The notes beneath the pieces were generated by a model. The model did not search any database, was not told the DNA's origin, and saw only the letters and a list, made by a program, of their open reading frames with translations. A stretch of DNA of 64,000 bases, from the NCBI GenBank assembly GCA_020205615.1, contig CM035163.1, positions 49,632,920-49,696,919 on the forward strand, written 5' to 3'. Numbering within the stretch: the first letter of the stretch is position 1; each line of letters starts with the position of its first letter. Origin of the DNA: Panax quinquefolius. Taxonomy: Eukaryota > Streptophyta > Magnoliopsida > Apiales > Araliaceae. Made by a program: the position numbers and the translations under genes. Of the stretch, positions 4,116-59,426 are shown in pieces.

Positions 4116-5196
4116 AAGATTGTAGTGTGCCAGTCCTGAAGAGAAATCATAGTGTTCTCATTTGGTTGCATCAAGCACCAAGGTGGCAAGACACCACGAT
4201 AAGAATCGTAGAGTATCATCTGGTTGTGTCAGAAGTTGTGGGCCTTGATCATCTGTTCAAGGATAAAATCTTAACAAATGTGGAATGGGTTTTAAACGTT
4301 GAAGTAATCACCAGTCCTAATGGCATAAAAATATCCTTAGTATGCAAGAAAGAGACGTATTAAAGAAGCTAAGGAAAGGACCATGGGACAGAGGAAAACA
4401 CCCTTTCAGGTGTTAGGTGAGAAAGCAGTCTGCTGTGTCAGTGGGCCAGAATGCAATTCAGAAGATATGCAGAAAAGTCTCCATCAAAGTTCAAAAATGT
4501 CAAACGCATTAAATGCTTCAACGGATGGATTCAACGGGCAGATTTCAAAGATCACATATATGCAAGACATCTGTAGATGATTCAATTAAGCTAGCAATTG
4601 AACAAAAAGGAAAAATACTCAACGCTCAACTCTACGATCTGAGAAAAAGAGAAAGCTTGCACAGCTACTTAGTTCTTTTGAACAAGAGCTTAACGGCAAC
4701 TGAGTAGCACCAACCAATAACTCAACAAATACCAATCAAGTGAAGTAAAAGTTCCAAGTCAGAAGGACTTGAAGAGTTCTAAGTGAACTGTGAAGAACCA
4801 AGTCTGCTGGACTTGAAGAGTTCAAGATTGAACTAAGAAGTTCCTAGACTGCTGGTCTAGAAGGAATCTGTGAGATTCAGAAAGTGTAAAAGACATCCTT
4901 AGTGGATTTCCTACTCGAGGAGTAGAAGAGTGGACTAGGAGTTTTAAGTGCTCTAAACCACTTAAAACTATTGTGTCTATTGCATTCTTGCTATAACTTC
5001 TATAACTACTATAACTGTTATAACTGTCTCACACTCATTAACTCACTATATTTAAAAAGGGAGATCAAACAAACCTTAATTCCACTGTGTTTAAATCATT
5101 ATCAAAACTAACAAAGTAAAATGAAAAAAAAATTAAATATCTATTCAACCCCCCCCCCCCCCCTCTAGATAATTATTGTGCCTTAGGGAACTAACA
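4116..5196 (+). mobile_element. Ty1/copia LTR fragment (3' part)
   Basis: This matches the 3' ~1.1 kb of the copia LTR at 42322-43780 in the same order (repeated gatcgtagtgt-like motifs, the hairpin block, the ataact repeats, and the terminal ggaactaaca). It ends in TAACA at 5196 but is followed by gypsy pol, not by a primer site, so it is a solo or broken LTR inserted in the chromovirus. Its 5' part was cut off by the minus-strand gypsy insertion ending at 4115. A run of 15 C at 5149-5163 replaces the shorter C tract of the other copy and may be miscounted. ATATTTAAAAAGGG near 5046 is a possible TATA element. Small frames at 4127-4707 have no recognisable product. Confidence 0.8.
4755..4967 (+). 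repeat. Array of eight hairpins in the copia LTR (diverged copy)
   Basis: Eight consecutive stem-loops: CAAGTC/GACTTG, AGTTC/GAACT, CAAGTC/GACTTG, AGTTC/GAACT, CTAGAC/GTCTAG, GAATCT/AGATTC, CTACTC/GAGTAG and TTTTAAGTG/CACTTAAAA. All stems are perfect, with loops of 3-8 nt. It is colinear with 43344-43555, and nearly all differences between the two fall in loops or spacers. Confidence 0.75.
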
Positions 5197-32347: not shown

Positions 32348-34943
32348 TGTGACGCCCCCAAAATAGGTATACATCACCCATTCTGAATTGTCAATACATG
32401 GTACAGAAACAACTATAACTTTATTATTACAACAATAAAACTGTGAGTTTGAATACAAATATTATCTTCTAGACAATATCTATACTCAAATAAATCCTCA
32501 TCACATTTATTGATACATTATTTTACAAAAATGGTGAGGACTACTAAACAACTCTCTCTAGAACCTTCATTCCATACCCCACTGCTACTCGCTATATTCT
32601 CGCCTCACGAGAAGAAAAATGGAACAAAAGGAAAAGGGTGAGCTCAACTAGCCCGAGAAAAAGAATATTATGACTAAGATAATATACAACAAATTATCAT
32701 TAGTCTTCAACGAGGAAAAATCTAATAGAATACAATAGACAACAAGTTTTAAATCAATATTCGCAGTGGAAATAATAATTCATTAGAAGAGTTAAGTAGA
32801 GAATGCAAACTACTATCTTCTATGTATGAATTTAAAAGTTCATCGCTCTATCTTTTATCCCGTAACATCAATCAATATACATCGGAATCAAATATTCATC
32901 TTTGCACTCACAAAGCCAAAGATATTCAACGATTGGTCATGTTCATCTAAACACATTCATCTTTGCACTCTGGGCCAAAGATATTCATCGAAATCATTCA
33001 TCTTTGCACTACTGGCCAAAGATATTCAATAATATCATCATTTAAGGTGAAGATGATGAAAATATTTTTAAAGAAAGCGAATCCGGTGAAACAAAATGAC
33101 AAGGATTAAGGATTAAGGATTCGTACTTTGTTTTATCCATGTCCAAAAATACCTCAAAATAATCATAGTGGTGTAAAATTCAAGAATGATCAAAACATGG
33201 ATACAATCAAAGCTAGTATCCACAATAGATATTTTGGGATTAAAAGAAAAATTTACATTTTTCTATAAATAGTCCAGTATTAAGTGAATAGTGTCGATAT
33301 CGTGAATAATAATCTGATATATCGTGAACAAAGTAACTCAGAACACCAAAAGTTCCAAATTTGATAAAAACTTTAGATCAATATTTCAAAGATAATGATA
33401 TTGAAGAAATAATATCATTCTGAAAAAAAAATATCCCTTACCTCACAAAGACAAGATTTATTTCTAAAAACAGGATATTGACTATAACTTGAACTTAATC
33501 AGTATAGCAATACTCAAAGTATACTCAAAATACTCACAAGAATAAACTCGATAATATAGAGAGAGAAAACTTCAATTTCGGTGTGATTTTCAATTCTAAC
33601 CTAAGCACCTATTTATAGGAAAATGCTTAGAACACCAAAAGCAGAAAATTTAATATAATATTATTATTTATAATAAAATTTTCTCGCCTCTTAGAATTCA
33701 GCTCTAGCATTTTCCACATGCTCACCTTCTAGAAAAAGTAATAAAAACGTTTTCCAATTTAAAATATTTTAAACTTCCAAAATCAATTATTTTGAGACTT
33801 GAACTTCAATAATTCATAATAAATAGCCCTTCTATCGAAAAATTCAAATCTCATGAGTTTTTTAGGAAATTCAATTCTCTACAACTTTTCGAAAAAGGTT
33901 TTCCAAATTCCAATGAAAATTGGCCAGAAATCCACAAGCGAGAGATTTTTCAAATTTATAATCAAATTTCGGTCAATAAATGGGGTCCATTGACATGTTT
34001 AACATGTTTTAAACATTTATTGCAACAAAAATACTCTTCCTCCTCGTATACTCATATATCCCACATTCGTTGTAAAAATATCACCATTATTATATTATTA
34101 AAATATAATAATATATTTAAATGAATTATTTTAACGAGAAAAAGATAAAATTTCAATTTTCAACAATTGTCACATTAAAAATTTTCTCCATCTATATCCA
34201 CATAAAATCAATATTTTCCTCATCATATGAATCAATAATTATTTATTCACAAATAATATTATGAGAATCACAATATTGACAACCGTGCGGTTCCGAGGAA
34301 AGAGGGCTTTCAATAAGAATTTCTCCTTCTTGGCGCAATTAATTAGGTGACCAAACCTCTCCTTAGACGAGAACTTTCTAGACATTGCCAATAATGTTAT
34401 CTAATAATATTATTCGGATAATATGAATTATTGCTTCGATAATGAAAAATCATGTGTAATGACAATTATTGAAAGAACAAACAATATAAAATATCAACGC
34501 AAAGAATTATTAAATCAATAAAATTTGAGCGATAATTCTTGTAACCATTATTGAGTAAGTGCCTTCTTACGTAAGAATCAATAATTGGTGCAATACCGTG
34601 TGCTACTGTGTTTTAACCACCGAGTATTTTAACAGTATTAATGGTAACAACAACGCCGTTATTTTTAAACAACTTATATTTGTCGTTTTCTTCATCCAAT
34701 TGCATTCCGTTATGGGGCCCACACATGGCTGCGCCGTCGTATGAATATTCCCCGACAGTACGAATATTCCACGACCAAACGAATATTCCCCGACAACAAT
34801 GAATATTTTATAACCACTTACTTATTTTGAAATATTTGCGTATTTTACGCATAACTATCCACATTAATCAAATCAACCCTTACTATTTCAAAATAATAAA
34901 TAGAGAAAATTAAATTTCATTAATAATAAGTTGGGGTCTTACA
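32348..34943 (-). repeat. 3' LTR of the complete chromovirus
   Basis: On the minus strand it reads TGTAAGACCCCAAC to TTGGGGGCGTCACA. The GAATATTC triplet (34743, 34762, 34781) is spaced exactly 19 bp. The ATCTTTG hairpins (about 32895-33030) have corrupted loops. The 68-codon plus-strand frame at 32826 is antisense to these hairpins. Confidence 0.92.
33436..33618 (-). promoter_or_regulatory. LTR core promoter (TATA) and 5' splice site, 3' LTR
   Basis: On the minus strand CTATAAATAG is at 33609-33618 and GAG|GTAAGG is at 33441-33436. Confidence 0.6.
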
Positions 34944-34956
34944 ACCTCCCCTCCTT
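34944..34956 (-). other. Polypurine tract
   Basis: AAGGAGGGGAGGT on the minus strand abuts the 3' LTR. It is preceded by the conserved AATTTCGAGGACGAAATT, the end of the pol frame. Confidence 0.8.
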
Positions 34957-34959
34957 ATG

Positions 34960-36430
34960 AAATTTCGTCCTCGAAATTGACGTACGTACTTGGTGTTTCG
35001 AAAAGGTGAGGATACCTCGCTTTCATTTCCGTTTCTAATTTCTAGGTCATTTCCTCTATAGCATGATTCCTCCACAAAACTTTAACTTGTGGTATGACCT
35101 TTGCGCGTAGGACATGTCCCTTCTTATCCAAGATCTTGACAGGTACCTCCTCATACGTTAAGTCTTCGGCTATCTCATCCGGTTCTAACTCTATAACGTG
35201 ATTCGGGTCTTACACATATTTACGAAGTACAGATATATGAAACACATTATGAACACGAGACATACTCGGAGGTAATGCGAGTCTATAGGCTACATTTCCT
35301 ACTCGGTTAAGAATTTGAAATGGACCAATAAATCGTGGATTGAGCTTTCCTCTCTTCCCAAATCTTGTAACTCCCTTCCATGGAGCAACTCGCAACAACA
35401 CATGATCTCCTATACTAAATTCCACGTCCTTTCGATGAAGATCCGCATAACTTTTTTGTTGATCTTGTGCCGTTTGTATACGTTGTCGAATCATTTGGAT
35501 CTTTTCGGTAGTCATACATACTAACTCGGGTCCCAACAATGTTGCTTCACCCACCTCATCCCAACATATTGGAGAGCGACACTTTTCGTCCATATAATGC
35601 TTCAAATGGAGCCACACCTATACTTGCACGATAATTGTTGTTGTAGAAGAATTCCACCAATGGTAAATACTTATCCCAAGCGCCCTTGAAGTCTAGGACA
35701 CGAGTCTTAATAGATCTTCAAGAGTTTGAATAGTCCTCTCGATTGTAAAATCTGGTTTGAGGATGGTATGCGAACTAAATCGTAAATTCGTGCCCATAGC
35801 TTTTTGCAAGCTAACCCAAAATCTTGAAGTGAATCATGGGTCACGATCAAGAAACTATGGATACGGGCATGCCATGCAACCTCACAATCTCATTCACGTA
35901 CATACTAGCAAAGCGTTCAAGGAATAAGTCTCCAGATCGGCAAGAAATGAAATGAGACTTGGTTAATCTATCAACAATAACCCAAATAGCATTGATGCCT
36001 TGAGAAACCGTAGTAGGAAGACCCGTAACGAAATCCATGGTAATGTGTTCCCACTTCCATTTCGGAATCTCAAGTGGTTGCAATGGACCCTTAGGTACTA
36101 GATGCTCGCCTTTACCGTTAGCAAGTTAAACACATCGAGATAAACTTTGCAATCTCTCTCTTCATATTGTTCAACCAAAATGTATGTCGAAGATCACGAT
36201 ACATTTTGGTACTTCCAGGATGGATTGCAAATGGTGTATTGTGTGCCTCCATCATAATCTTGTACTTCAAATCAGAGTCGTTAGGGACACAAAGTCTAGA
36301 GTGGACTCGAAGTATTCCTTCTTCATCAATTCTCGCTTCCGGAATAGCTCCTTCTTGTACTTTCTTCTTCATACGCATCAGCTCTCCGATTCGTGGCTTG
36401 AGCAACCTTAACTTTTTCTATTAAAGTTGG
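34960..36430 (-). pseudogene. Integrase and chromodomain of the complete chromovirus
   Basis: Reading on the minus strand: the HHCC zinc finger (EAHNTPFAIHPGS, CLTC) near 36130-36270, the first catalytic Asp in ITMDFVTGLP near 36025, the second Asp region near 35840, and the GRKC and [11 protein letters not shown] blocks at 35210-35590. A TAA stop at 35210-35212 comes right after the LRKYV motif, in front of the chromodomain tail (35000-35200); it is also present in the second copy at 50824-50826, so it is real. Other breaks (for example around 35690-35780, where the Glu of the DDE triad should lie) differ between the two copies and may be sequence errors. Confidence 0.88.
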
Positions 36431-37860
36431 CTCTGTCGCGTATACTTGACATCATCACACTCATTCCACATATGATCTTCTACTCAACGCGCGTCGGCTA
36501 CCACGTTCGCTTTTCGAGGATGGTATTGAATAGTGTGGTCGTAATCTTTCAACAACTCAAGCCAAGCGTCGTTCTTGCGTGTTGAGTTCCTTTTTGCGTG
36601 AAGAAATATTTGAGGCTTTTATGGTGCGAATATATCTCCACTTTCTCCCCATATAGATAGTGCCTCCATATCTTTAGCTTGAAAACGATTGCGCCAACTC
36701 TAGATCATGTGTAGGATAATTCCTCTCATATTCTTTAAGTTGTCATGGAGGCATAGGCTATGACTTTCCCACGTTTCATGAGAACACATCCTAACCCTTT
36801 GCTCGAAGCATCATTTGTAGATAACAAATCCATCCGAACCGGATGGTATTGTTAGAACAGTCTTAGAAATGAGTCTCCTCTTGAGCTCTTGGAAACTCTT
36901 CTCGCATTCTTCGCGCCCAAACGAATTTTGTATCCTTCCGAAGTTAATTTGGGTTAATGGAGTAGCGATTCGAGAAAACCCTTCCACGAATCTCCGATAA
37001 TAAACAGCTAAACCCAAAAAGCTACGTACTTGATCACAGAGCTTTGGTTGCTCCCAACTTTGTATTGCTTCAATCTTATTTGGATCAACGAGATACTCCA
37101 TGTTTTGACACCAGCGTGCCCAAGAAATGCTACTTCCTCAAGCCGAACTCGCATTTCTTCAATTTGGCATATAGTTTGTTTTCACGAAGCCTTTGGAGTA
37201 CCGACTTCAAATGGTGCTCATGATCTTCACGACTTTTGGAATATATGAGGATGTCATCAATAAAGACAACAACAAACCGATCCAAATATTCCTTGAATAC
37301 TCGGTTCATCATATCCATGAAAGTCAGCAGGAGCATTAGTCGATCCGAAAGACATGACTAAGAATTCATAATGCCCATACCGAGTTAGAAAGGCGGTCTT
37401 TGGAATATCCTCGATTCTAATCTTGATTGATGATATCCGGAGCGAAGATCGATTTTGAAAAGAATTGTGCCTCTTACGGTGGTCGAACAAGTCATCAATA
37501 CGAGGTAGAGGATAACTATTCTTGATGGTGACATGGTTCAATTCAGATAGTCAATACAAAGTCGCATACTCCGTCTTTCTTCTTTACTGAATAAAAGCAG
37601 GAGCACCCCGAGGAGATGTCTTGGGGCGAATGAAACCGATGTCCAACAATTTCTGTAGTTGGACCTTTAACTCTGAAGTTCAATAGGAGCCATTCGATAT
37701 GGGGTTTTAGAAATGGGCTTTGTACTAGGTTCAAGATCAATAAAGAATTCAACTTCACGTTACGGGGTAGGCAAGGAAGTTCTTGAAATCGTCGTCGGAA
37801 AGTCAATAACAACAGGAATATTATTCAAATTTGGCGTGTCTTTATTCAAAGCCATAACAT
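36431..37860 (-). pseudogene. Reverse transcriptase and RNase H of the complete chromovirus
   Basis: RT spans about 36950-37860, with FIDD at 37252-37263, KKCEF near 37150 and [11 protein letters not shown] near 37010. RNase H follows to about 36480 (KSLKYF near 36610). At least six frame breaks are needed to join these blocks. At 36805-36835, where the DASGKG box should lie, both this copy and the copy near 52425 are garbled in different ways. In the plus-strand element the same box is clean, near 12984. Confidence 0.88.
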
Positions 37861-38400
37861 GGGCTAAGAAAGCTTGACATCCGTTTTTCAATAAGCGAAT
37901 AGCTTTATGATTAGATATGAGCGGTGATTGATTTTAATGGTTTAGTTGCTTGAATTAAATACAGCAGGTTGGTTAGGAATATGAAAACTAACAACCTTAC
38001 GAAAACAATCAATTTTGGCATGATGAGTAGTTAACAATCAATCCTAAAATCACATCAAAAGCAAGTATTTTTAAAGAGATAAGGTCAATAGGTAAGGTGA
38101 TGGTGCCAACTTGAATCAAAAAAAGATTTATAAGCGGTGGATGTGATGAAAGTTTCTCTAACGGAGTTTCCACAAATAGGTCAAAGTCTAATTTCTCCGG
38201 AGTCAAGTTTAAGCGTTGAGCACATGCAGGGAGAGATAAATGAATGGGTAGCACGGTATCAAGTAAGGTATAAACTTCTGAGAATTTATAAATAGCTTAC
38301 CCGTGATCACCTCGTTTGGGTTCCTCGCATTTTGACCGATCCACAACAAAGCGCTCTTCCGGAATCGTTGACTTTGACTTTTACGGGGACGATCTTTTGA
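37861..38400 (-). pseudogene. Aspartic protease region of the complete chromovirus
   Basis: The blocks YTLLDT, CAQRLNLTPEKLDFD and the linker with HVMALNKD-like residues identify the protease. The catalytic D-T is visible at about 38255-38260, but the Gly codon after it is lost in a local error: the plus strand reads gcacggtatc where the clean paralogue at 22138 has gaaccagtat. This CAG/CTG site is also wrong, differently, in the second copy. Confidence 0.82.
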
Positions 38401-39528
38401 GTCACCGTCCCCATTGAACTAGGGTTTCATTCTGCGTACAATCTCAAGCGATATGTCCTTCCTTTCCACAATTATAGCATACCTTGAAGCTATTGTGGGC
38501 GGTTTTGGTGATATGTCCCTCTTTCCGCATTTGTAGCATATAATGGGTGGTCGTTCTCCTCCCTTAGAACCGATTCTTTTGCAGCATTTGTCGTCTTCAC
38601 ATGGTCGTTGTTGAATCTCCTCTTTTAAAATCTCCTCCGACTCGTTTCTTCAATTTTCATGGCCATGATTACCACCGGAGTGGTTACCATTTTGTCCGTC
38701 TGCTTTTCTTTCTCATTTGGTTATCATTATTACATTGTTCGCTATCTCCGAGTACGATCTGGTTATGGTCCCTCGGTTGAACATACTCGTTATCTCGCTC
38801 TAACAATTGAGCCCTATTAACAACATCTGAATAGAGAGAAAATTTATGAGAAATGAGATATTGTCGTATCCCAGGGTTTCAAACCTCTAAGAAACATCCG
38901 CGTCATACGTTCCTCATTCTCCACCAAATGAGGTGCAAACTGGATAACTCTGCAAACTTTGCCTCGTCTTGAGACAATCATGTGTTGTTTTCTCTAATCG
39001 ATGAACTCCACTTCCTTCATATACGAACACTTTCGAGGAAAGTATTTGTCATTAAATAGTTTCTGAAAGCGTCTCCCAAGACATGCTTTGAAAGTGAATT
39101 TGGATGGATGTACGCTTCACAGAGACTCCCACCGATGATGCCTTTCATACCACGGAACATAAAGGTGGCGAATGGAACCTTCTATTCTCCGTGCATCCCA
39201 AGACATCGAATATCTTGGTAATTTGCTTGACCCATGTTTCGCTTGTGATCGGATCGGCTTTCCCTTAAATTCTGGTGGTCCCGACTCTTTGAAATGCTTG
39301 GTTGTGACAACCAGTGAATTGCTATCATTTCCTCTGTATTTTGAACACGAGTCTCCTAAATGCGATTTTGCATGAAGCGCAAAAAGCTTCTAAACATCCC
39401 TCGTTCATCATCCGCTTCGGTGGTGTTGTTCACGGGAGGAACATTGTCGAGATGTTGCACGTTCTCCTCGTTGGTGAGTGAGCGTCTCCACAGTCTCATT
39501 TCCATTGTTAATATTCTCGATTCGACAT
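38401..39528 (-). pseudogene. gag of the complete chromovirus
   Basis: The start ATG is at 39528 (ATGTCGAATCGAG). The capsid region contains the conserved TKIFDVLGCTENR block near 39200 and AYHRWESV-like residues near 39110-39140. Two zinc knuckles lie at about 38450-38560: CYKCGK...HISP and CYNCGKEGHI. The frame is broken in several places. Gag forms the particle in which reverse transcription occurs. It precedes protease in the same transcript. Confidence 0.82.
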
Positions 39529-39698
39529 TCTCAAATCCGTCATAAAATAAGGGTTAATTAAGGAAATCAATATATCACATAATATCCTTATATCTTGACC
39601 AACTAACAAATAAGCTTAGGTAGGACACACTAGCGAAGGATTTACTCGTCTCTCCCTCCTAGTTCTATTCCCGATCTCCGCCGGAGATCATATCCTAA

Positions 39699-39709
39699 GC
39701 TCGATACCA
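39699..39709 (-). other. Primer binding site (tRNA-iMet type)
   Basis: TGGTATCGAGC on the minus strand lies just inside the LTR end at 39712. It is one base shorter than the standard TGGTATCAGAGC: the A of the CAG is missing. Confidence 0.8.
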
Positions 39710-39711
39710 AC

Positions 39712-42321
39712 TGTGACGCCCTAAAATAGGTATACATCACCCATTTTGAGTTGTCAATACATGGATGCGAAACAACTACAACTTTATTATTACAACAATA
39801 AAAGCGTGAGTTTGAATACAAATATTATCTTCTAGACAATATCTATACTCAAATAAATCCTCATCACATTTATTGATACATTATTTTACAAAATGGTGAG
39901 GACTACTAAACAACTCTCTCTAGAACCTTCATTCCATACCCCAGGCTGCGTACTCACGTTATATTCTCGCCTCACGAGAAGAAAAATGGAACAAAAAGGA
40001 AAAGGGTGAGCTCAACTAGCCCGATAAAGAATATTATGACTAAGATAATATACAACAAATTATCATTAGTCTTCAACGGGGAAAAATCTAATAGAATACA
40101 ATAGACAACAAGTTTTTAAATCAATATTACATGGTGAAATAATAATTCATTAGAAGAGTTAAGTAGAGAATGCAAACTACTATCTTCTATGTATGAATTT
40201 AAAAGTTCATCGTCTATCTTTTATCCACTGTAACATCAATCAATATACATACGGAATCAAATATTCATCTTTGCACTGAGCCAAAGATATTCATCGATTA
40301 GTCATGTTCATCTAAATACATTCATCTTTTGCACTCACGGCCAAAGATATTCATCAAAAATCATTCATCTTTTTACTCTGAGCCAAAGATATTCAATAAT
40401 ATCATCATTTAAGGCGAGGATGATGAAAATATTTTTAAAGAAAGCGAATCCGGTGAAACAAAATAACAAGGATTAAGGATTAAGGATTCGTACTTTGTTT
40501 TATCCATGTCCAAAAATACCTCAAAAATAATCATAATGGTGTAAAATTCAAGAATGATCAAAACATGGATACAATCAAAGATAGTATCCACAATAGATAT
40601 TTTGGGACGAAAAGAAAATTTTTATTTTTAGATAAATAGTGTCGTGATTAAGTGAATAGTGTTGTATCGTGAATAGTCTGCAGTATCGTGAATAGATAAC
40701 TCAGACACCAAAAGTTCCAAATTTGATAAAAACTTGAGATCAATATTTCAAACATAATGATATTGAAGAAATAATATCATTCCGAAAAAAAAATATATCC
40801 CTTACCTCACAAAGACAGTACTTCTAGTTGAAACACCGGATATTGACTATAACTTGAACTTGTGCAGTATAGCAATACTCAAAGTATACTCAAAATACTC
40901 ACAAGAATACGCTTCGATAATATAGAGAGAGAAACTTCAATTTACGGTGTGATTTTCAATTCTAACCTAAGCACCCTATTTATTGGAAAATGTTTAGAAC
41001 ACCAAAGCAGAAAATTTAATATAATATTATTATTTATAATAAAATTTTCTACGCCTCTTAGAATTCAGCTCCTAGCATTTTCCACATGCTCACCTTCTAG
41101 AAAAAGTAATAAAAACGTTTTTCCAATTTAAAATATTTTAAACTTCCAAAAATCAATTATTTCGGAGCTTCAGAACTTCAATAATTCATAATAAATAGCC
41201 CTTCTATCAGAAAATTCAAATCACGCGAGTTTTTATAGGAAATTCAATTCTCTACAACTTTGCAGAAGAAAGTTTTTCCAAATTCCAAACAGAAATTGAC
41301 CAAAATCCACAAGCAGGAGATTTTTCAGGTATAATCAAATTTCGGTCGATAAATGGGGTCCAATGAGCATGTTTAACATGTTTTAAACATTTATTGCAAC
41401 AAAAATACTCTTCCTCCTCGTATACTCATATATCCCACATTCGTTGTAAAAATATCACCATTATTATATTATTAAAATATAATAATATATTTAAATAATT
41501 ATTTTAATGAGAAAAGATAAAATTTCAATTTTCAACAATTGTCACATTAAAATTTTCTCCATCTATATCCACATAAAATCAATATTTTCCTCATCATATG
41601 AATCAATAATTATTTATTCACAAATAATATTCTGAGAATCACAATATTGACAGTGAGGCGGTTCAGGAAGAGGGGCTTTCAATAAGAATTTCTCCTTTAC
41701 TGCGCCCAATTAGGTGACCAAACCTCTCCTTAGGCAGAACTTTCTAGACATTGCCAATAATGTTATCTAATAATATTATTAGGATAATATGAATTATTTC
41801 TTCGATAATGAAAATCTTTGTGTAATGACAATTATTGAAAAATGACAAATAATATAAAATATCAATATGACAATTATTAAATCAATAAAATCTTTGAGCA
41901 GTAATTCTGTAACCATTATTGAGTAGTGCCTTCTTACGTAAGAATCAATAATTGGTGCAATACGCAGTGTCTTCTTGTGTTTTAACCACCAAGTATTTTA
42001 ACGATGATTAATTGGTAACAACTACGTAGTTATTTTTAAACAACTTATATTTGTCGTTTTCTTCATCCAATCGCTTTCAGTTATGGGGCCCACACATGCT
42101 GCTACGGCAGGTTGCGATACGAATATTCACAAGCGATTTGAATATTCCAAGACCAAACGAATATTCCCAAACAACAATGAATATTTTATAACCACTTGCT
42201 TATTTTGAAATATTTGCGTATTTTACCCATAACTATCCACATTAATCAAATCAACCCTTACTATTTCAAAATAATAAATAGAGAAAATTAAATTTCATTA
42301 ATAATAAGTTGGGGTCTTACA
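39712..42321 (-). repeat. 5' LTR of the complete chromovirus
   Basis: Same structure as 32348-34943. On the minus strand TGTAAGACCCCAAC begins at 42321 and the LTR ends at 39712 beside the primer site. The TATA region reads CAATAAATAG instead of CTATAAATAG. Confidence 0.92.
40800..40985 (-). promoter_or_regulatory. 5' LTR promoter (variant TATA) and 5' splice site
   Basis: CAATAAATAG on the minus strand at 40976-40985 replaces the CTATAAATAG of the 3' LTR, and the same variant is in the second copy at 56566-56575. GAG|GTAAGG is at 40805-40800. Confidence 0.6.
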
Positions 42322-43343
42322 CATGATTATATGGAAAGTCCTTAAAAGAATATATGTACAAGGACTTAGTGATAGATCAAATTTTTTAGGTTGATCTCAG
42401 CTTTTAAGTGTTCATCATTCCATAAATGAATGTATAGATAAAGAGATCAAAGATGTTAGGTTAATCCATGACTTGAAAAGTATAGATAGGCTTCAACAAG
42501 AATCATAGTTTATCAAGCTGATCAACAGATTGAAAAAGCTAAGGCAGGATCGTAGAGCTTAACAGATCGTACTGTATCTGCCTTAAAGGACCTGTTCAGA
42601 AATTCTAGAGTGGTCCAGACGTTTTCCAAGCTAACTTCGAGGAGATCGTAGTGTTCTCTAGGAAATGTTGAGTCCGCAAGATGGGCAAGTGATGATCGTT
42701 GTGTTAAAAGATCGTAGTGTGCAAATCCTTGCGAGAAATCGTAGTGTTAAGCAAGTGCAAGCACTAATATGACAAGACTCTACGATATGGATAGTAGAGT
42801 GTCATCTGCCTTGTTTCAGAAGCATCGAGCCCTAACTTTTGTTTGAAGATAAATTCCAACAAATGAGGAATGGGTTTTGAACGTTAAAGCATTCACCAGT
42901 CCCAACGGTACAAAAGATATCCTTAGTATTGATCAAAAGGAACGTATTCAAGAAGCTAAGAAAAGGTCCATTGGGTAGAGGAAAACACCTTTTCAGGTGC
43001 TAGGTGAGAAAGCAGTCTGCCGTGTCAGTGGGCCAGAATGCAATTCAGAAGATGTGCAAAAATGTTTCCATCAAGGTTCAGAAATGTCAAACGTATTTAA
43101 TGCTTTATCAGATGATTTCAACGGATAGATTTCAAAGATCTCATATATACAGAATACAGACACATGAGAGAAATAAGCAAGCATTGATCAAAAATGCATA
43201 AGAACACTCAACGCTTAACTCTACGATCTGAGAAAAAGGGAAAGCTTTCTTAGCTACTCAGTTCTCTCGAACAAGTGTTTAATAGCAACTGAGTAGCATC
43301 AATCACGATCTAAACAACATTCAATCAACTGAAGTAAGAGTTC

Positions 43344-43555
43344 CAGGTCTGAAGGACTTGAAGAGTTCTAAGTGAACTGTGAGGAACCAAGTCTGCTGGA
43401 CTTGAAGAGTTCAAGAGTGAACTAAGAAGTACCTAGACTGCTGGTCTAGAGGGAATCTGTGAGATTCAAGAAGTGTAACAGACATCCTTAGTGGATTTCC
43501 TACTCAAGGAGTAGAAGAGTGGATTAGGAGCTTTAAGTGCTCTGAACCACTTAAA
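43344..43555 (+). repeat. Array of eight hairpins in the copia LTR
   Basis: Stems: CAGGTC/GACTTG (43344-43360), AGTTC/GAACT (43364-43378), CAAGTC/GACTTG (43388-43404), AGTTC/GAACT (43408-43423), CTAGAC/GTCTAG (43433-43449), GAATCT/AGATTC (43453-43467), CTACTC/GAGTAG (43500-43514) and TTTAAGTG/CACTTAAA (43532-43555). Loops are 3-8 nt; two different stems share the loop TGCTG. Confidence 0.8.
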
Positions 43556-43782
43556 ACTGCTGTGTTCATTATAACTGCTATAACTGATATAACTACAATA
43601 CCTGTTATAACTATCATAACTGCCTCATTCTCATTAACACAAGATATCTAACAAAAGGTTTATCAAATACTCATTCTGCTGTGCATTGATTACCATCAAC
43701 CTAAATAGGTTAAAAGAAAAAGTTTTAATTATCTATTCAACCCCCCTTCTAGATATCTATCGTGCCTCCGGGAACTAACAAT

Positions 43783-43794
43783 TGGTATCAGAGC
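43783..43794 (+). other. copia primer binding site
   Basis: TGGTATCAGAGC, the exact initiator-tRNA-Met form, two bases after the LTR end at 43780. Confidence 0.9.
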
Positions 43795-43833
43795 AGGTTC
43801 TATAATACAGCCTACAAAGCTTGAGTAGATCCA

Positions 43834-44503
43834 ATGGCACACTTACTAAATGAATCAAAGGCGGAGGAGGTAGCAAGCCACCTATGTGCAACAAAGATAA
43901 ATGTGTTAACTGGAAGGTTTGGATGCAAGCTTACATGGATTCAATAGATGAAGATCTATTTGAAATTGTTCATAATGGGCCCTATGTTCCTACAAAGCTT
44001 GCACCAACCATGAGATGACCCGCATAAGAGTATAGATTAAGGTCAAAGGGGAATGGATAGAGAACGAGAAGAGAACTATCCAACTTGACAAAAAGTCCAA
44101 GAATATCTTATTTCAATCATTAGAAGATGATCTATTTGAAAACGTGGTCAACTGCAAAATAGCAAAGGAGGTTTGGGAAGCACTACTCATTATGCATGAA
44201 GGAACAGAAGAAGTCAGAGAAAACAAACAATCTCTCTTGACTCAATAATATGAGATGTTTGCCCATGTTCAAGGAGAGAACGTCACTGTTACATACGAGA
44301 GATTCAATAGTCTGCTCCACTCTCTACGAGCCTATGGAAAGATATATCCAAACAAAGATCTGATCATAAAGTTCATGAGAGCTTTACCAAGCAAGTGGGA
44401 TGCCAAAACCACTGCCATTAGAGAATCAAAGAATCTACATGAAATGATTATTCAACAGTTATATGGCAACCTCCTCACGTACGAACTAGAGCTGACACAA
44501 TAA
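43834..44503 (+). pseudogene. Ty1/copia gag (UBN2 type), broken and truncated
   Basis: The ATG at 43834 opens MAHLLNESK, then WKVWMQAYMDS, the N-part of a UBN2 (copia gag) domain. The second half (44255-44503) shows YERFNSLLHSLRAYG, IKFMRALPSKWD and LYGNLLTYE, typical of the domain's end. Breaks: a one-base loss near 43863 (ggcgg against gactgg in the other copy), a TAG near 44032, a TAA near 44249, and TAA at the end. The TAG and internal TAA are shared with the second copy and so are real. The gene is cut at 44503, before the zinc knuckle, and pol is absent. Confidence 0.88.
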
Positions 44504-45480
44504 TGATACCTAGCAAGATTTAAACACTTAATTGAATTTCGAATATTACATAAGTCAAAAAGTTAACACAATCTAATTTAACATTGTGTGCTAACTAATA
44601 GGAAAGATTATGAGATGTGGAGTAGAGTTTACATTAAAATTACTATATGTAGTTATGTGACTAATAATTGATGTATATGATTATATAATTGTATAGGGCA
44701 CGTGAAGTGCAGATAACTGTAAGTTGTTAAACGTTTATTGGTAAACAACGATCAAGGCAAGTCTTTCAGTTCCTATTTGATATGTGAGCTTGATGATTAA
44801 CTGTTTTAAATATTTGTTGCAAAGAGTATGAGGTGTATATATATGTTGAATGTATGAAATGTTAAAGTCAATTTATGACTACGTTGTTTGACTAAAGCAT
44901 GCTGATTGAGTAAGGAACTCAATCTTTATAATTGTTATATGGATTGTAGCATGTATGTTATTATAGTCCGATGTTCATGATATATATGTTGAGCATGTTA
45001 TTATGTGCTACGTGATGCATGAAAACTGTTAGATTTTCTTTGGTCATCGAGCTCAACCTTGCAAATAACCACTTTTGCAGGTTAAAGATTTAAGGTAAGG
45101 ATATGTGCTATATGAAATATAGAGACCCATATTCACGAAGATTGCTTATGTTTTATGGGAAATGTATTTAATATTTTGAATGTAACATGTTGTTGAATTG
45201 TAAGTTGAGTTATCCAATGTATATGGATACCTATTTATGATGTAAGACTTTGTATAGTTATTTTATTATAACGATTCACGATATAAATTTGAATTGAAGA
45301 GATGTAATGTAAAGGTTGCAAATTAGGGCAATAAAGAAGGAAATGTATAAAAGTTTTAATTATTCCGCAAATTTCAATGGTTGTATTACCGTTTAATGAT
45401 ATAAAATTAGAGGTTGATTGTATTATTAATGGTGAAGTCGAGAATTAAATTTTATGAATTTTGGGAATTAAATTCTGAGT
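44504..45480 (+). mobile_element. 5'-truncated gypsy-type LTR
   Basis: The segment ends next to a primer site (45481) and contains TTTTGCAG and AAG|GTAAGG (45095-45100). It lacks the TGTAATATCCCGAG start seen at 63724, so its left part is missing where it meets the copia gag. No gene is visible. Confidence 0.6.
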
Positions 45481-47879
45481 TGGTATCAAAGCTGTAGGTT
45501 ATAAACCTTAGGTAGGAGTACCGTAGGCTATAACCTTAGAGAAGGAAGATGAAGATAATGAAAGAATAAGCTCAATTAGAGTTTGAATAATAAGAAGTAA
45601 TTTAAGAAATTTATAAAGGAGGGATTAAAGCATGCGTAAAAGGATTCAAAGAAGAATCTCGCAGAGTTATAAGGAATATGAATGTGGGGTTACCCAACTC
45701 CAATAATAAGATTGTAAGGTGATAATATATAGACAATGTCTATAAGAAGAGAGTGATAAAGAAGTTAAGAATCAAAAACTTATATTTATGTATGGTACAA
45801 TCGTACTCTTTAATAGTTGATGTATGGTATCTGGGCTAAACGATTCTTTCATAGAGCGGAGGTATATACGAACTAGCAACTCAGAACCTAGTTTGTTGGT
45901 TGTTTGTGGGAAACCACTCAGCGTACCATATTGAAATTGTTAGAGACTCGATGTGTACCAAGTATAGAAATACATATGTATGATGAAAATATAGAACTTA
46001 AATGAAATGTTGAGCAATATAAATGAAGTTAAAAATTCTTAAAAGAAGAATTGTTATATAAACAAGGGAATTCAAAGAAGAATCTTGAAGATAATAAATG
46101 GCAATAGCCAATATAAAGAATAATGTTGTAAGTGATGAAAAAGGAAAGAAAGAGGATGCGTAGAAACAAAGCGATCACGAGTTAAGAAAAAGACTATTAA
46201 GGGAGATGATTCTAGAATAAAATCACGACGTGATTTGTTTAAGTTATAAAAAAAAGATGGTGCGTAATGTTTGAATAATTATAGCTTGATGCTATGAAGA
46301 TGATGTACTATGAAATAGTACGAGATAACTCACGAGAAGTTATAGATGATGTTATACGAGGAATTTGTATCGAGCAAAGAGCAAGTTAAGAGTAAGATAG
46401 AGTTAGGTGGGATTTCAATTGAGGACTCATGTGATGGCTGAGTTGTACAAATCTTTGTATGGGCGAGGGTTTGTGCTTGCACTTAGTTTATTACATTGAT
46501 GATCATTGGAATGTCGGTGTTGTGCTATCAATGTATGTGTGGTGAAAAGGAGATTCTTTTCTCATGTGTATATTTGATAGTTAGAAACTATTAAGATTAG
46601 TAAGATATTATTAGGATTAGGTGCGGTTCTTAAAACTAATGCATATGGTAAGTTCGTGACTCATAATAATATGGTATGTTTTGAACCCCTCGGCGAATGG
46701 ACGCCTATGGTCTGACTAGGATAAGTTCATAAACTCATATTATTGTGGCAAGTTCCTGAACTTCTAATGTTCGATAAGTTTGATGAACTATATTGGGTAG
46801 GAAATGGTTATAGTATAGAGAGCATTGATGAAGTTGAAGATTGATAAAATGGTTAAGTAATGAAGTAATGGAGTAATGATTGAAGTTGATGGATACCGGA
46901 TATTCTAAATCTACTAGCTATGCTAGACTTTCAAAATTTCATCGACTTTCGTCTTTGATGGTTATACTTTTGATTTTGGAAAAAAAAATGTATTTGGGTC
47001 TGCTGTAAACCAAAGAATTTTTAAAAACATTGTTATTGTTTGTATGTCTATGCTAATTGCTTCGGCTAGACAAAAATGATTTAAAATATATCAAAATGTA
47101 TTTTTATATATATTATTAATGCATCCTGTAACCTGGTGGTGAGATGATAAAAATGATGGAGTCATTAATGCAGTATTACTTAGTGTTGGATGTGATCTAA
47201 GGATCGTCAGCCCACTATGGTATGATGTAGTATGATAAAATCACCAAATGACGAAATCCTCAAATGGACTGTAAATATAGTGCGGTATCATGGTGTCATA
47301 AAAGATATTTGAGATTTCTTTAAGATATGAGAATATATATATATATATATGTATGTATATTTCGATTGATGTCTAAATTATTGTAGAAGTCTATGCTATT
47401 TGATTCAGCTAGATGAATATTGAAAGATGTTCATGACATTCAAGCGTTTATTGAAAAGTTATGCCAAACCAAATTGTTTTGGTGAGGATTCAGATGTTGA
47501 AAAGTTGAGGTGAACAACCCTATAAGGAGACACGTTTTTGGGGACAATGGTTTGAGCGTAATGTATATAGTCGTTACAAAACACTACGTTGCATTGACAA
47601 CGTAGTGGTACAATAAAGTTGGCCACCTAGTGTACATGTGGAAGGTGTTTTAGGTCTTTGTGATTGATAAACACTACGGGTTTGCGATGTGAAGGATTGA
47701 GTTGAAAGCACTAGTAAACCAAGAATAGAGTTCACTGTCTTGTGACCCCTCAAAGCATGATTTGGAATCTTTGAAATTTCATTATTCATATCGCTTCCCA
47801 ATTATTGAGCAATTATGGAAGATTCTTATTATTCTAAAAGGTGAAAGTGTAAAGGATGAAAATTAAGCAAAACATAATA
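45481..47879 (+). mobile_element. Decayed interior of a gypsy element, cut by the assembly gap
   Basis: TGGTATCAAAGC (45481-45492) is the primer site, and the leader resembles that next to the LTR at 762. No long frame is seen. A weak trace (atggctgagttgtac, then ctttgtatgggcgagg, near 46430-46475) recalls the integrase block with LYGR. The 75-codon minus-strand frame at 47574-47801 has no recognisable product. The same sequence, extended to a 3' end, is at 61074-63723. Confidence 0.6.
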
Positions 47880-47979
47880 NNNNNNNNNNNNNNNNNNNNN
47901 NNNNNNNNNNNNNNNNNNNNNNNNNNNNNNNNNNNNNNNNNNNNNNNNNNNNNNNNNNNNNNNNNNNNNNNNNNNNNNN
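47880..47979. other. Assembly gap of exactly 100 N
   Basis: One N closes one line, 60 fill the next and 39 follow. A round 100 is a common placeholder for a gap of unknown size between scaffolded contigs. Confidence 0.98.
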
Positions 47980-50557
47980 GCCCCAAAATAAGTATACATC
48001 ACCCATTCGAATTGTCAATACATGGCATGCGAAACAACTATAACTTTATTATTACAACAATAAAGCTGTGAGTTTGAATACAAATATTATCTTCAGACAA
48101 TATCTATACTCAAATAAATCCTCATCACATTTATTGATACATTATTTTACAAAAATGGTGAGGACTACTAAACAACTCTCTCTAGAACCTTCATTCCATA
48201 CCCCGACTACTCGCTATATTCTCGCCTCACGAGAAGAAAAATGGAACAAAAAAGGAAAAGGGTGAGCTCAACTAGCCCGGTAAAGAAAGAATATTATGAC
48301 TAAGATAATATACAACAAATTATCATTAGTCTTCAACAGGAAAAAATCTAATAGAATACAATAGACAACAAGTTTTTAAATCAATATTAGAAGTGGAAAT
48401 AATAATTCATTAGAAGAGTTAAGTAGAGAATGCAAACTACTATCTTCTATGTATGAATTTAAAAGTTCATCGCTCATCTTTTATCCCCAGTAACATCAAT
48501 CAATATACATACGGAATCAAATATTCATCTTTGCACTCTAAAGCCAAAGATATTCTGCGATTAATTGGTCATGTTCATCTAAACACTGTTCATCTTTGCA
48601 CTACGCCAAAGATATTCATCGAAATCATTCATCTTTTGCACTCTGGGCCAAAGATATTCAATAATATCATCATTTAAGACCAAGATGATGAAAAATATTT
48701 TTAAAGAAGCGAATCCAATTGAAACAAAATGACAAGGATTAAGGATTAAGGATTAGTACTTTGTTTTATCCATGTCAAAAATACCTCAAAAAATAATCAT
48801 AGTGGTGTAAAATTCAAGAATGATCAAAACATGGATACAATCAAAGCTAGTATCCACAATAGATATTTTGGGACGAAAAGAAAAATTTACATTTTTCTAT
48901 AAATAGTCAGATTCGTGAATAGTGTCATTATCGTGAATAAGACCGTATACGTGAATAAAGAACTCTACACCAAAAGTTCCAAATTTGATAAAAACTTTAG
49001 ATCAATATTTCAAAGATAATGATATTGAAGAAATAATATCATTGAAAAAAAAAAATATCCTTACCTCACAAAGACATGATTTAGTTGAAACAGGATATTG
49101 ACTATAACTTGAACTTGTAGAGTATAGCAATACTCAAAGTATACTCAAAATACTCACAAGAATACTCGATAATATAGAGAGAGAAAACTTCAATTTCGGT
49201 GTGATTTTCAATTCTAACCTAAGCACCCTATTTATAGGAAAATGCTTAGAACACCAAAGCGTAAAATTTAATATAATATTATTATTTATAATAAAATTTT
49301 CACGCCTTAGAATTCAACTCTAGCATTTTCCACATGCTCACCTTCTAGAAAAAGTAATAAAACGTTTTTCAATTTAAAATATTTTAAACTTCCAAAATCA
49401 ATTATTTTGAACTTGAACTTCAATAATTCATAATAAATAGCCCTTCTATCGAAAAATTCAAATCTCTTGAGTTTTTAGGAAATTCAATTCTCTACAACTT
49501 TTGAAAAAGGTTTTCCAAATTCCAAACAGAAATTGGCGAAATCCACAAGCGAGAGATTTTTCAAAGCTATAATCAAATTTCGATCAATAAATGGGGTCCA
49601 TCGACATGTTTAACATGTTTTAAACATTTATTGCAACAAAAATACTCTTCCTCCTCGTATACTCATATATCCCACATTCGTTGTAAAAATATCACCATTA
49701 TTATATTATTAAAATATAATAATATATTTAAATGAATTATTTTAATGAAAAAAGATAAAATTTCAATTTTCAACAATTGTCACATTAAAAATTTTCTCCA
49801 TCTATATCCACATAAAATCAATATTTTCCTCATCATATGAATCAATAATTATTTATTCACAAATAATATTCTGAATCACAATATTGTGACAACCGAGCAG
49901 TTCCTGGGAAGAGGGGCTTTCAATAAGAATTTCTCCTCACTTGGCGCTGATTAGGTGACCAAACCTCTCCTTGAGTAACTTTCTAGACATTGCCAATAAT
50001 GTTATCTAATAATATTATTGAGGATAATATGAATTATTGCTTCGATAATGAAAAATCTTGTGTAATGACAATTATTGAAAGAACAAAGCAATATAAAATA
50101 TCAACGCAAACAATTATTAAATCAATAAAATATTTGAGCGAGTAATTACCGTAACCATTATTGAGTAGTGCCTTCTTACGTAAGAATCAATAATTGGTGC
50201 AATACTGCAGTAATCTTCTTGTGTTTTAACCACCAGAGTATTTTAATAAAAGATTAATGGTAACAACAACGCCGTTATTTTTAAACAACTTATATTTGTC
50301 GTTTTCTTCATCCAATTGCATTCAAGTTATGGGGCCCACATGGTCTGCCATCGTATGAATATTCCCAGAAAGCGATGCGAATATTCCCACGACCAAACGA
50401 ATATTCAAACAACAATGAATATTTTATAACCACTTACTTATTTTGAAATATTTGCGTATTTTACGCATAACTATCCACATTAATCAAATCAACCCTTACT
50501 ATTTCAAAATAATAAATAGAAAATTAAATTTCATTAATAATAAGTTGGGGTCTTACA
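47980..50557 (-). repeat. 3' LTR of the chromovirus, second copy, cut by the gap
   Basis: Colinear with 32354-34943. The first bases after the gap (gccccaaaataagtatac) correspond to position ~32354, six bases inside the LTR end. The TATA box, splice-like site and GAATATTC motifs (from 50356) are present. Confidence 0.9.
49059..49237 (-). promoter_or_regulatory. LTR promoter (TATA) and 5' splice site, second copy
   Basis: CTATAAATAG on the minus strand at 49228-49237 and GAG|GTAAGG at 49064-49059. Confidence 0.55.
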
Positions 50558-51900
50558 ACCTCCCCTCCTTATGAAATTTCGTCCTCGAAATTGACGACGC
50601 ACGTCTTGGTGTTTGAAAAGGTGAGGATACCTCGCTTTCATTTCGCTTTCTAATTTCTAGGTCATTTCTCATATAGCATGATTCCTCCACAAAACTTTAA
50701 CTTGTGGTATGACCTTTCTTGCGTAGGACATGTCCTTCTTATCCAAGATCTTTGAGGTACCTCCTCATACGTTAAGTCTTCGGCTATCTCATCCGGTTCT
50801 AACTCTATAACGTGATTCGGGTCTTACACATATTTACGAAGTACAGATATATGAAACACATTATGAACACGAGACATACTCGGAGGTAATGCGAGTCTAT
50901 AGGCTACATTTCCTACTCGGTTAAGAATTTGAAATGGACCAATAAATCGTGGATTGAGCTTTCCTCTCTTCCCAAATCTTGTAACTCCTTCCATGGAGTT
51001 AACTCGCAACAACACATGATCTCCTATACTAAATTCCACGTCCTTTCGATGAAGATCCGCATAACTTTTTTGTTGATCTTGTGCCGTTTGTATACGTTGT
51101 CGAATCATTTGGATCTTTTCGGTAGTCATACATACTAACTCGGGTCCCAACAATGTTGCTTCACCCACCTCATCCCAACATATTGGAGAGCGACACTTTC
51201 GTCCATATAATGCTTCAAATGGAGCCACACCTATACTTGCCTGATAATTGTTGTTGTAGAAGAATTCCACCAATGGTAAATACTTATCAAGCGCCTTGAA
51301 GTTCAGGACACGTAGTCTTAATAGATCTTCAAGAGTTTGAATAGTCCTCTCGATTGTCCGTCCGGTTTGAGGATGGTATGCCGAACTAAATCGTGAAATT
51401 CGTGCCCATAGCTTTTTGCAAGCTAACCCAAAATCTTGAAGTGAATCATGGGTCACGATCCAAAACTATGGATACTGGGCATGCCATGCAACCTCACAAT
51501 CTCATTCACGTGCATATACTAGCAAGACGTTCAAGGGAATAAGTCTCCGATCGGCAAGAAATGAAAGCAGACTTGGTTAATCTATCAACAATAACCCAAA
51601 TAGCATTGATGCCTTGAGAAACCGTAGGAAGACCCGTAATGAAATCCATGGTAATGTGTTCCCACTTCCATTTCGGAATCTCAAGTGGTTGCAATGGACC
51701 CTTAGGTACTAGATGCTCCGCCTTTACACGTTGGCAAGTTAAACACATCGAGATAAACTTTGCAATCTCTCTCTTCATATTGTTCAACCAAAATGTATGT
51801 CGAAGATCACGATACATTTTGGTACTTCCGAGATGGATTGCAAATGGTGTATTGTGTGCCTCCATCATAATCTTGTACTTCAAATCGAGTCGTTAGGGAC
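50558..51900 (-). pseudogene. Integrase and chromodomain, second copy
   Basis: Better preserved than 34960-36430. One 210-codon frame (50824-51456) covers the last part of the catalytic core through the [11 protein letters not shown] domain. In it the Glu motif reads TIERTIQ, where the plus-strand element has QSERTIQ. The zinc finger and first Asp are in the frame 51506-51883. The TAA stop at 50824-50826, before the chromodomain, is the same as at 35210. The polypurine tract is 50558-50570. Confidence 0.88.
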
Positions 51901-53260
51901 ACAAAGTCAGAGTGGACTCAAGTATTCCTTCTTCATCAATTCTCGCTTAGGAATAGCTCCTTCTTGTACTTTCTTCTTCATACGCGCATCATTTCGGATT
52001 GGGTGGCTTGAGCAACCTTAACTTTTTCTATTAAAGTTGGCTCTATGCGTACACTTGACATCATCACACTCATTCCCACATATGATCTTCTACTCAACGC
52101 GTCAGCTACCACGTTCGCTTTTCCGGGATGGTATTGAATAGTGTGGTCGTAATCTTTCAACAACTCAAGCCAGCGTCGTTCTGCCGCGTGTTGAGTTCCT
52201 TTTTGCGTGAAGAAATATTTGAGGCTTTTATGGTCCGAATATATCTCCACTTTCTCCCCATATAGATAGTGCCTCCATATCTTTAAGCTGAAAACATTCG
52301 GCCGCCAACTCTAGATCGTATGTAGGATAATTCCTCTCATATTCTTTAAGTTGTCATGAGGCATAGGCTATGACTTTCCCACGTTTCATGAGAACACATC
52401 CTAACCCTTTGCACGGAAGCATCGCATTTGAGATAACAAATCCATCCGAACCGGATGGTATTGTTAGAAACAGTGCCGAAATGAGTCTCCTCTTGAGCTC
52501 TTGGAAACTCTTCTCGCATTCTTCGCTCCAAACGAATTTTGTATCCTTCCGAGTTAGCTGGGTTAATGGAGTAGCGATTCGAGAAAACCCTTCCACGAAT
52601 CTCCGATAATAAACAGCTAAACCCAAAAAGCTACGTACTTCAATCACCGACTTCGGTTGCTCCCAACTTTGTATTGCTTCAATCTTCGCTGGATCAACAG
52701 ATACTCCATGTTTTGACACCACGTGCCCAAGAAATGCTACTTCCTCAAGCCAGAACTCGCATTTCTTCAATTTGGCATATAGTTTGTTTTCACGAAGCCT
52801 TTGGAGTACCAGCTTCAAATGGTGCTCATGATCTTCACGACTTTTGGAATATATGAGGATGTCATCAATAAAGACAACAACAAACTGATCCAAATATTCC
52901 TTGAATACTCGGTTCATCATATCCATGAAAGCCGCAGGAGCATTAGTCGATCAAGAAGACATGACTAAGAATTCATAATGCCCATACCGAGTTCAAGGCG
53001 TCTTTGGAATATCCTCGGTTCTAATCTTGATTGATGATATCCGAATGAAGATCGATTTTTGAAAAGAATTGTGCCCTTCAAATTTGGTCAAACAAGTCAT
53101 CAATACGAGGTAGAGGATAACTATTCTTGATGGTGACATGGTTCGATTCCCGATAGTCAATACTGAAAGTCGCATACTCCCGTCTTTCTTCTTTCTGAAT
53201 AAAACAGAGGGCACCCCGAGGAGATGTACTAGGACGAATGAAACCGATGTCCAACAATTC
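51901..53260 (-). pseudogene. Reverse transcriptase and RNase H, second copy
   Basis: A 190-codon frame (52354-52926) carries FIDD (52861-52872), [27 protein letters not shown] and the start of RNase H, uninterrupted. In the first copy the same stretch is broken about three times. The DASGKG box near 52425 is garbled. RNase H continues with KSLKYF at about 52210. Upstream, the RT fingers (52990-53214) are frameshifted near 53000, 53045 and 53080. Confidence 0.88.
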
Positions 53261-59373: not shown

Positions 59374-59426
59374 ATTGGTATCAGAGCAGGTTCTATAATA
59401 CAGCCTACAAAGCTTGAGTAGATCCA

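What the first reader, a model, noticed from the sequence alone, without database searches (positions are those of the whole stretch)
43344..43555. Eight consecutive hairpins in 212 nt of a copia LTR, with changes confined to loops and spacers
Seen: eight adjacent inverted repeats with stems of 5-8 bp and loops of 3-8 nt, seven of them perfect and one with a G-U pair. A second, diverged LTR at 4755-4967 keeps all eight. Of about twelve hand-counted differences between the two, only one hits a stem, and it swaps A-U for G-U; the others are in loops or spacers, although stems make up about 45% of the block. Two stems with different sequence share the loop TGCTG. Inference: the structure is under selection in RNA or DNA form (packaging, dimerisation, translation control or a protein-binding array). 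I know of no named element of this shape.
Basis: partly seen in the sequence, partly recalled or inferred. Interest (0 to 1): 0.75.

Follow-up and report, generated by a model that had tools for sequence, protein, structure and literature searches.

The report
Conserved hairpin array in Sirevirus LTR
A plant jumping element carries a string of eight small hairpins whose pairing has been kept during evolution even where the letters changed, most likely in the untranslated start of its RNA, where it may guide packaging or translation.

Summary
In detail: eight short hairpins fill window 43344-43555, more than shuffled sequence gives. The LTR belongs to a Sirevirus (plant copia) by its PBS junction, poly-C signal, copia gag and, in a related copy, the PPT/attachment site. 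In a genome sample not drawn by the block, stems vary 2-3 times less than loops and spacers. Copies of this family show no covariation. A second family in the same genome, alike mainly in this block, does: 10 of 49 pairs have changes on both sides in 25 cells, reached by 1 and 0 of 500 shuffles. Tandem modules inside the block differ by compensated pairs as well. In this family the block lies 3' of a conserved TATA-like box, inside 636 nt without ATG on the sense strand, so it is probably in the RNA leader; wobble pairs exceed A-C mismatches. Against that, the second family has ATGs after its block, and predicted folds keep only part of the array. Palindrome arrays in Sirevirus LTRs are published, but as repeated boxes, mostly CGG-CCG, upstream of the TATA box. 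I call this a new variant of a known kind. Packaging (Gag binding) is my preferred function and is inferred only. The copy at 58.9 kb looks like an assembly artefact.

The parts
42322..43780 (+). Sirevirus 5' LTR, 5' end cut off at 42322 where gypsy-type sequence ends; LTR ends CTAACA
   Evidence: fuller copies begin TGTTGG
43142..43150 (+). TATA-like box CATATATAC, candidate promoter
   Evidence: CATATAT in 33 of 35 rows, TATATA in 29; no experimental start site
43197..43832 (+). 636-nt stretch without ATG, candidate RNA leader (rest of R-U5, PBS, up to gag ATG at 43834)
   Evidence: 0 ATG; 2000 shuffles mean 8.9, none with 0
43344..43360 (+). hairpin H1 (6 bp, one G-U; first stem of module 1)
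43364..43378 (+). hairpin H2 (5 bp)
43388..43404 (+). hairpin H3 (6 bp, loop TGCTG; first stem of module 2)
43408..43423 (+). hairpin H4 (6 bp)
43433..43449 (+). hairpin H5 (6 bp, loop TGCTG; first stem of module 3); 4 of its 6 pairs have a change on both sides in the 13-row alignment
43453..43467 (+). hairpin H6 (6 bp, loop GTG)
43500..43514 (+). hairpin H7 (6 bp, loop AAG; module 4)
43532..43555 (+). hairpin H8 (8 bp, loop 8)
43741..43751 (+). poly-C integrase-signal-like motif
   Evidence: motif from PMC2829016
43779..43794 (+). LTR/PBS junction CA/ATTGG/TATCAGAGC
   Evidence: motif from PMC2829016
43834..44503 (+). gag start and broken gag pieces
   Evidence: Retrotran_gag_2 in two of three pieces searched
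4755..4967 (+). same hairpin block in an LTR of another subfamily (4110-5196, cut at its 5' side)

Best explanation
The block is a structured RNA element of a Sirevirus: an array of small stem-loops, built in part from about 45-nt two-hairpin modules, in the untranslated leader (R-U5) of the element's genomic RNA. Shown here by computation: the array exists, stems evolve more slowly than loops and spacers, and pairs are compensated between families and between modules. Inferred from sequence: transcription starts near 43175, so the block lies about 170-380 nt into the transcript. Inferred only: the regularly spaced stems with purine-rich single-stranded spacers (AAG, AAGAAG) are a docking array for Gag, that is, an encapsidation signal; a role in translation start is the next choice.
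For: Variation in a sample drawn by the LTR end and gag start: stems 0.033, loops 0.081, spacers 0.069, leader 5' of the block 0.082, 3' of it 0.137 (30 rows). Per site: p 0.0014 on 30 rows (1 of 211 shifts of the stem mask does as well) and 1.5e-4 on 25 rows (0 of 211). Variants shared by 5 or more copies: 9 in stems, 25 elsewhere; single-copy variants 65 and 68; p 0.014, 0.037 without CG/CHG transitions. Second family (L163, L173, L174, L175, L182): 10 pairs changed on both sides against 5.9 in shuffles (1 of 500), 25 cells against 9.7 (0 of 500), covariation 0.167 against 0.104 (0 of 500) and at most 0.074 when slid. Module 2 to module 3: 12 pairs, 6 unchanged, 6 changed on both sides, none broken; tandem period 44-45. 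RNA sense: no ATG in 636 nt of the window copy while the reverse complement CAT is common. G-U against A-C cells 93:27 in 90 copies, 28:15 across families (p 0.033), 38:21 in the 30-row sample; stem transitions 16:5 shared against 10:15 single, p 0.014, or 12:5 against 9:15, p 0.038, without CG/CHG sites.
Against: Within this family there is no covariation (1 pair, as in shuffles), and RNAalifold on 90 copies prefers a partly different long-range fold with no compensated pair. The best sense fold keeps five of eight hairpins, and the fold of a second-family block is ordinary (z -1.1, 30 of 200 shuffles as good). Without the error-prone CTG/CAG surroundings the stem-loop contrast shrinks to 0.027 against 0.045 (spacers 0.060). 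Variants in 2-4 copies are not clearly depleted in stems (p 0.085). By pairs instead of cells the wobble excess is smaller: 26 against 18 in 90 copies, 18 against 12 across families. Second-family stretches have 6-10 ATGs after the block, and 25 of 32 copies of the first have at least one ATG in the leader. Some stems are reduced: H1 and H7 in L173, H3 in L174 and L175 (3 bp or fewer); one H8 pair is broken in 11 of 90 copies. 17 of 20 other LTRs with the same 18-letter PBS stretch show no similarity to the block. No transcript data; nothing here bears directly on Gag binding.
Confidence: 0.5

Rival explanations
1. DNA-level palindrome array: the boxes are binding sites for host transcription factors, a variant of the palindromic repeated motifs (RM) of Sirevirus LTRs, acting upstream of a promoter at the TATAAC repeats (43570-43611).
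For: Sirevirus LTRs carry clusters of palindromes a short distance upstream of a TATA box (PMC2829016); TATAAC repeats begin about 15 nt after the block; the second family has many ATGs after the block, as if transcription began there; antisense DNA folding has the strongest z.
Against: Stem sequences differ from box to box and between families while pairing is kept, which does not suit one binding protein; a TATA-like box lies upstream and the ATG-free stretch begins before the block; G-U exceeds A-C, which selection on double-stranded DNA would not give, though a mutation bias could.
Confidence: 0.22
2. Translation element: the ATG-free structured leader lets ribosomes reach gag by scanning, shunting or internal entry, and the hairpins tune it.
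For: 636 nt without ATG in the window copy; small hairpins; the stretch before the block is CAA-rich in the second family (L174).
Against: Second-family stretches hold 6-10 ATGs after the block; simple scanning has no need of eight conserved stems.
Confidence: 0.2
3. Host-side or neutral origin: hairpins feed small-RNA production and silencing, as proposed for maize Sirevirus palindromes, or are kept by a mutational process (palindrome correction, conversion between modules) without benefit.
For: Maize Sirevirus palindromes are small-RNA hotspots (passages of PMC10760457 and PMC5311732); modules are tandem copies and some copies have lost parts of the array (L121, L132).
Against: An element should not conserve a liability; in 54-nt windows the block is better conserved than the rest of the LTR except its last 54 bases, whereas the maize region is described as rapidly evolving; stems are far shorter than usual dicing substrates (recalled); palindrome correction alone would not make the spacers better conserved than the 3' flank.
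Confidence: 0.08

Closest known systems
Palindromic repeated motifs (RM) in Sirevirus LTRs (Bousios et al. 2010, PMC2829016; maize follow-up Bousios et al. 2016, not held, known here from citations)
   Same: Sirevirus LTR; many dyad-symmetric boxes clustered in one region; the maize ones are reported to form hairpins (PMC10760457 passage).
   Different: There one box sequence is repeated, with a CGG-CCG core in all but Tnd-1, most clusters form CpG islands and lie upstream of the TATA box; here stems differ, no CG is in the block, the block is highly conserved and in this family lies 3' of a TATA-like box.
Retroviral packaging signals (psi): stem-loops with purine-rich single strands in the 5' leader (MPMV, MMTV; abstract starts seen)
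   Same: Leader position (inferred), several stem-loops, purine-rich unpaired spacers.
   Different: No homology tested or expected; short regular repeated hairpins; Gag binding untested; a plant copia element, not a retrovirus.
Repeated cis-regulatory boxes of Tnt1/Tto1-type copia LTRs (recalled; box I of Tnt1 is named as symmetric in PMC2829016)
   Same: Repeated motifs in a copia LTR.
   Different: Few copies, U3 position, like boxes (recalled).

Membership tests
Sirevirus (Pseudoviridae) | LTR/PBS junction CA/ATTGG/TATCAGAGC | tested here: met
   43779-43794
Sirevirus (Pseudoviridae) | PPT AGGGGGAG plus AT/TG attachment site and flanking inverted repeat | tested here: met
   in copy L005 exact, with CATCAAAT/ATTTGATG arms; L006 and L003 with a changed PPT; not in the window itself
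Sirevirus (Pseudoviridae) | poly-C integrase signal near LTR end | tested here: met
   43741, and in many copies
Sirevirus (Pseudoviridae) | copia-type gag/pol, RT in the Sirevirus clade | tested here: inconclusive
   Retrotran_gag_2 in 2 of 3 gag pieces; no RT tree made
Sirevirus (Pseudoviridae) | multiple PPT copies before the 3' LTR | not tested
   linker region of an element with both LTRs not examined
Sirevirus RM boxes | dyad-symmetric boxes, eight or more per element | tested here: met
   eight boxes in the LTR
Sirevirus RM boxes | one repeated box sequence per element | tested here: not met
   H1 about equal to H3, H2 about equal to H4, the others differ
Sirevirus RM boxes | CGG-CCG core | tested here: not met
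   no CG between 43306 and 43761; Tnd-1 lacks the core in the paper too
Sirevirus RM boxes | position upstream of the conserved TATA box | tested here: inconclusive
   TATA-like box 200 nt upstream, TATAAC repeats about 15 nt downstream
Retroviral-type packaging signal | Gag binds it and RNA uptake needs it | not testable with these tools
   needs bench work
Rfam families | match to any of 4227 covariance models | tested here: not met
   0 matches in the window at gathering scores

The most novel reading that the evidence does not exclude
A modular stem-loop array, selected for RNA pairing and shared by two diverged Sirevirus-type families, forms a structured leader domain in plant copia genomic RNA: a candidate encapsidation or translation signal that did not appear in the paper listings I searched.
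Probability: 0.45. Interest if true: 0.7.

Novelty: new variant of a known kind. Interest (0 to 1): 0.55.

Why it matters
Sireviruses make up a large part of some plant genomes (about 21% of maize, PMC10760457 passage), and to my knowledge little is known of how they select and translate their RNA. An element whose pairing is kept across families gives a defined, testable target. It also separates two things that could be confused: the CGG-CCG palindromes described in maize as rapidly evolving, and the slowly evolving hairpin array described here.

Tried and rejected
Rejected: the third window copy (L028) as an independent copy, because it looks like an un-merged contig overlap. L031 from viral contigs as a relative: a 24-nt chance match. 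Covariation inside the family: none. RNAalifold consensus of 90 copies: partly a different fold. The early reading that the block is simply the published RM cluster: not kept, because two RM features fail and one is unclear. Odd H5 sequences in L012, L111, L112, L116 and L117: not used as compensations, since they resemble the overlap copy's differences at CTG.

Rows dropped before counts. L001, L028, L031 out, 39 copies counted; duplicates between the first two searches removed, 52 kept; 90 distinct blocks of 91 found (52 plus L072-L110), two of them the window's own; L001, L042, L028 and L031 left out; 34 of the 40 listed places fetched; L133 has no similarity upstream of 43694 and was left out; 35 rows (33 sampled, 2 from the window); five truncated rows left out (30 rows), then five noisy ones (25 rows); both results are given. 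ATG count: L124, L134, L144 out, 32 rows, 49 ATG against 218 CAT; 7 rows with none, 11 with one, 14 with more; 40 of 73 PBS sites fetched; 8 of the 40 resemble the block (3 this family, 5 the second). Whether the other 32 are Sireviruses was not tested; 13 rows chosen by me; one wrongly oriented row (L126) was removed; the alignment was not fitted to the structure, but the structure comes from its first row.

Papers: PMC2829016 abstract and parts 1-4 of 7 of its main section; PMC10760457, PMC5311732, PMC3414828 passages only; the 2016 maize paper is not held. Searches; no title or abstract start listed there describes a Sirevirus leader hairpin array; the library lacks most subscription papers.

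Full report
What is there. Window 43344-43555 holds eight adjacent hairpins with stems of 5-8 bp. A perfect-stem count gives 74 paired bases in the block and 98 in the second copy at 4755-4967, against a shuffle maximum of 54 in 1000 for each; two other windows (1114, 7103) reach 78 and 74. The block sits in an LTR that runs to 43780 and is cut at its 5' side at 42322; fuller genome copies start TGTTGG about 50 bases further out. The PBS junction, poly-C signal and copia gag pieces in the window, and the PPT with AT/TG site and inverted repeat in copy L005, place the family in Sirevirus as defined in PMC2829016. No RT tree was made.

The third copy. 32356-47879 and 47981-63478 are the same 15.5 kb (94.6% identity, 379 gap openings) on either side of a 100-N gap; their differences lie near CTG and CAG 3.4 and 2.7 times as often as expected. 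This looks like two contig ends that overlap and were not merged, one of them with basecalling errors. It was left out of all copy counts.

Conservation. In 39 genome copies the 54-nt windows touching the block show 0.017-0.057 substitutions per site per copy, the others 0.067-0.180 apart from the last (0.041); at 30-nt grain one stretch far upstream (42352) is also low, 0.022. Because those copies were found with a query that included the block, I drew a second sample by a 75-nt stretch at the LTR end and gag start and fetched 34 of 40 places. There stems vary at 0.033, loops 0.081, spacers 0.069, the leader on both sides 0.082 and 0.137, the U5 end 0.044 (30 rows). Per site, stems 0.033 against 0.073, p 0.0014, 1 of 211 mask shifts as low; with five noisy rows removed 0.023 against 0.069, p 1.5e-4, 0 of 211. 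Leaving out the surroundings of CTG/CAG, where this assembly seems error-prone, gives stems 0.027, loops 0.045, spacers 0.060.

Age of variants. In 90 distinct copies, single-copy variants fall on stems as often as elsewhere, as expected of neutral decay after insertion (and of sequencing errors); variants shared by five or more copies are depleted in stems, 9 against 25, p 0.014; the 2-4-copy class is not clearly so, p 0.085.

Covariation. Inside the family there is none. A search for a PBS variant (40 of 73 sites fetched) led to a second family. L163, L173, L175 and L182 resemble this LTR at 69-74% in the block; L174 is linked through L163 (81%). L163 otherwise matches only at the U5 end and PBS. 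On a 13-row alignment 91.3% of cells are paired and 10 of 49 pairs have changes on both sides in 25 cells; shuffles give 5.9 pairs and 9.7 cells on average, slid structures at most 6 and 9. H5 is CTAGAC/GTCTAG in the window, CAAGGC/GCCTTG in L182 and CAAGGT/ACCTTG in L174. Inside the block, modules 2 and 3 share the loop TGCTG and the spacer AAGAAGT, while 6 of 12 pairs changed on both sides and none broke; the tandem-repeat finder follows the period only to 43444, so the kinship of the second half of module 3 rests on my alignment. Limits: few rows, chosen by me, related to each other, and a structure taken from the first row.

Strand and position. The sense strand of the window copy has no ATG from 43197 to the gag ATG at 43834, against 8.9 expected, while CAT occurs many times. 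Other copies hold 1.5 ATG on average against 6.8 CAT. CATATAT at 43142 is in 33 of 35 rows. The simplest reading is a start near 43175 and a leader that includes the block. The second family has 6-10 ATGs after the block in the stretches held, so the start site there is open. Wobble pairs exceed A-C mismatches: 93:27 cells in 90 copies (24 of the 93 from one old polymorphism), 28:15 across families, 38:21 in the sample. This fits selection on the sense RNA better than on double-stranded DNA, though counted by pairs the excess is smaller and CHG mutation bias may share in it.

What is known. PMC2829016 describes palindromic boxes in 13 of 21 Sireviruses, eight or more per element, 12 of 13 with a CGG-CCG core, mostly forming CpG islands upstream of the TATA box. 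Later maize work ties such palindromes to small RNAs and to rapid evolution (passages). The present block shares symmetry and number, but not the repeated sequence, the core or the fast evolution. I therefore do not file it as an RM array.

How it may work. The regular stems with purine-rich single-stranded spacers suggest a binding array for Gag on the genomic RNA, by analogy with retroviral leaders (abstract starts). This step is inference. Translation control and a DNA-level enhancer remain open.

Noticed in passing
window 32356-63478, gap 47880-47979: Two 15.5-kb copies meet at a 100-N gap and look like un-merged overlapping contig ends; their differences cluster at CTG/CAG, as long-read miscalls at CHG-methylated sites would.
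   Followed up: partly
L182 about 354-491 (minus strand), upstream of its block: A further repeated unit with short inverted repeats appears twice before the block, as if the array can grow by modules (sequence printed).
   Followed up: no
L121, L124, L132: Copies that lost one or more hairpins; in L132 the loss appears to lie between two CTGCTGG repeats.
   Followed up: no
window 42549-42786 and 43221-43227: Repeated ATCGTAG/CTACGAT motifs, five of the six upstream of the TATA-like box, a possible counterpart of the published RM boxes.
   Followed up: no
window 43570-43611: TATAACTGA-type repeats directly after the block, variable in number between copies.
   Followed up: no
window 1114-1325 and 7103-7314: Two other windows as rich in perfect inverted repeats as the block (78 and 74 paired bases).
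   Followed up: no
window 27243-27680: A tandem repeat with 73-bp period, also present near 30217.
   Followed up: no
L163, L173, L174, L175, L182, after the block: Cluster of 6-10 ATGs in the stretches held after the block in the second family, unlike the ATG-free leader of the window copy.
   Followed up: partly
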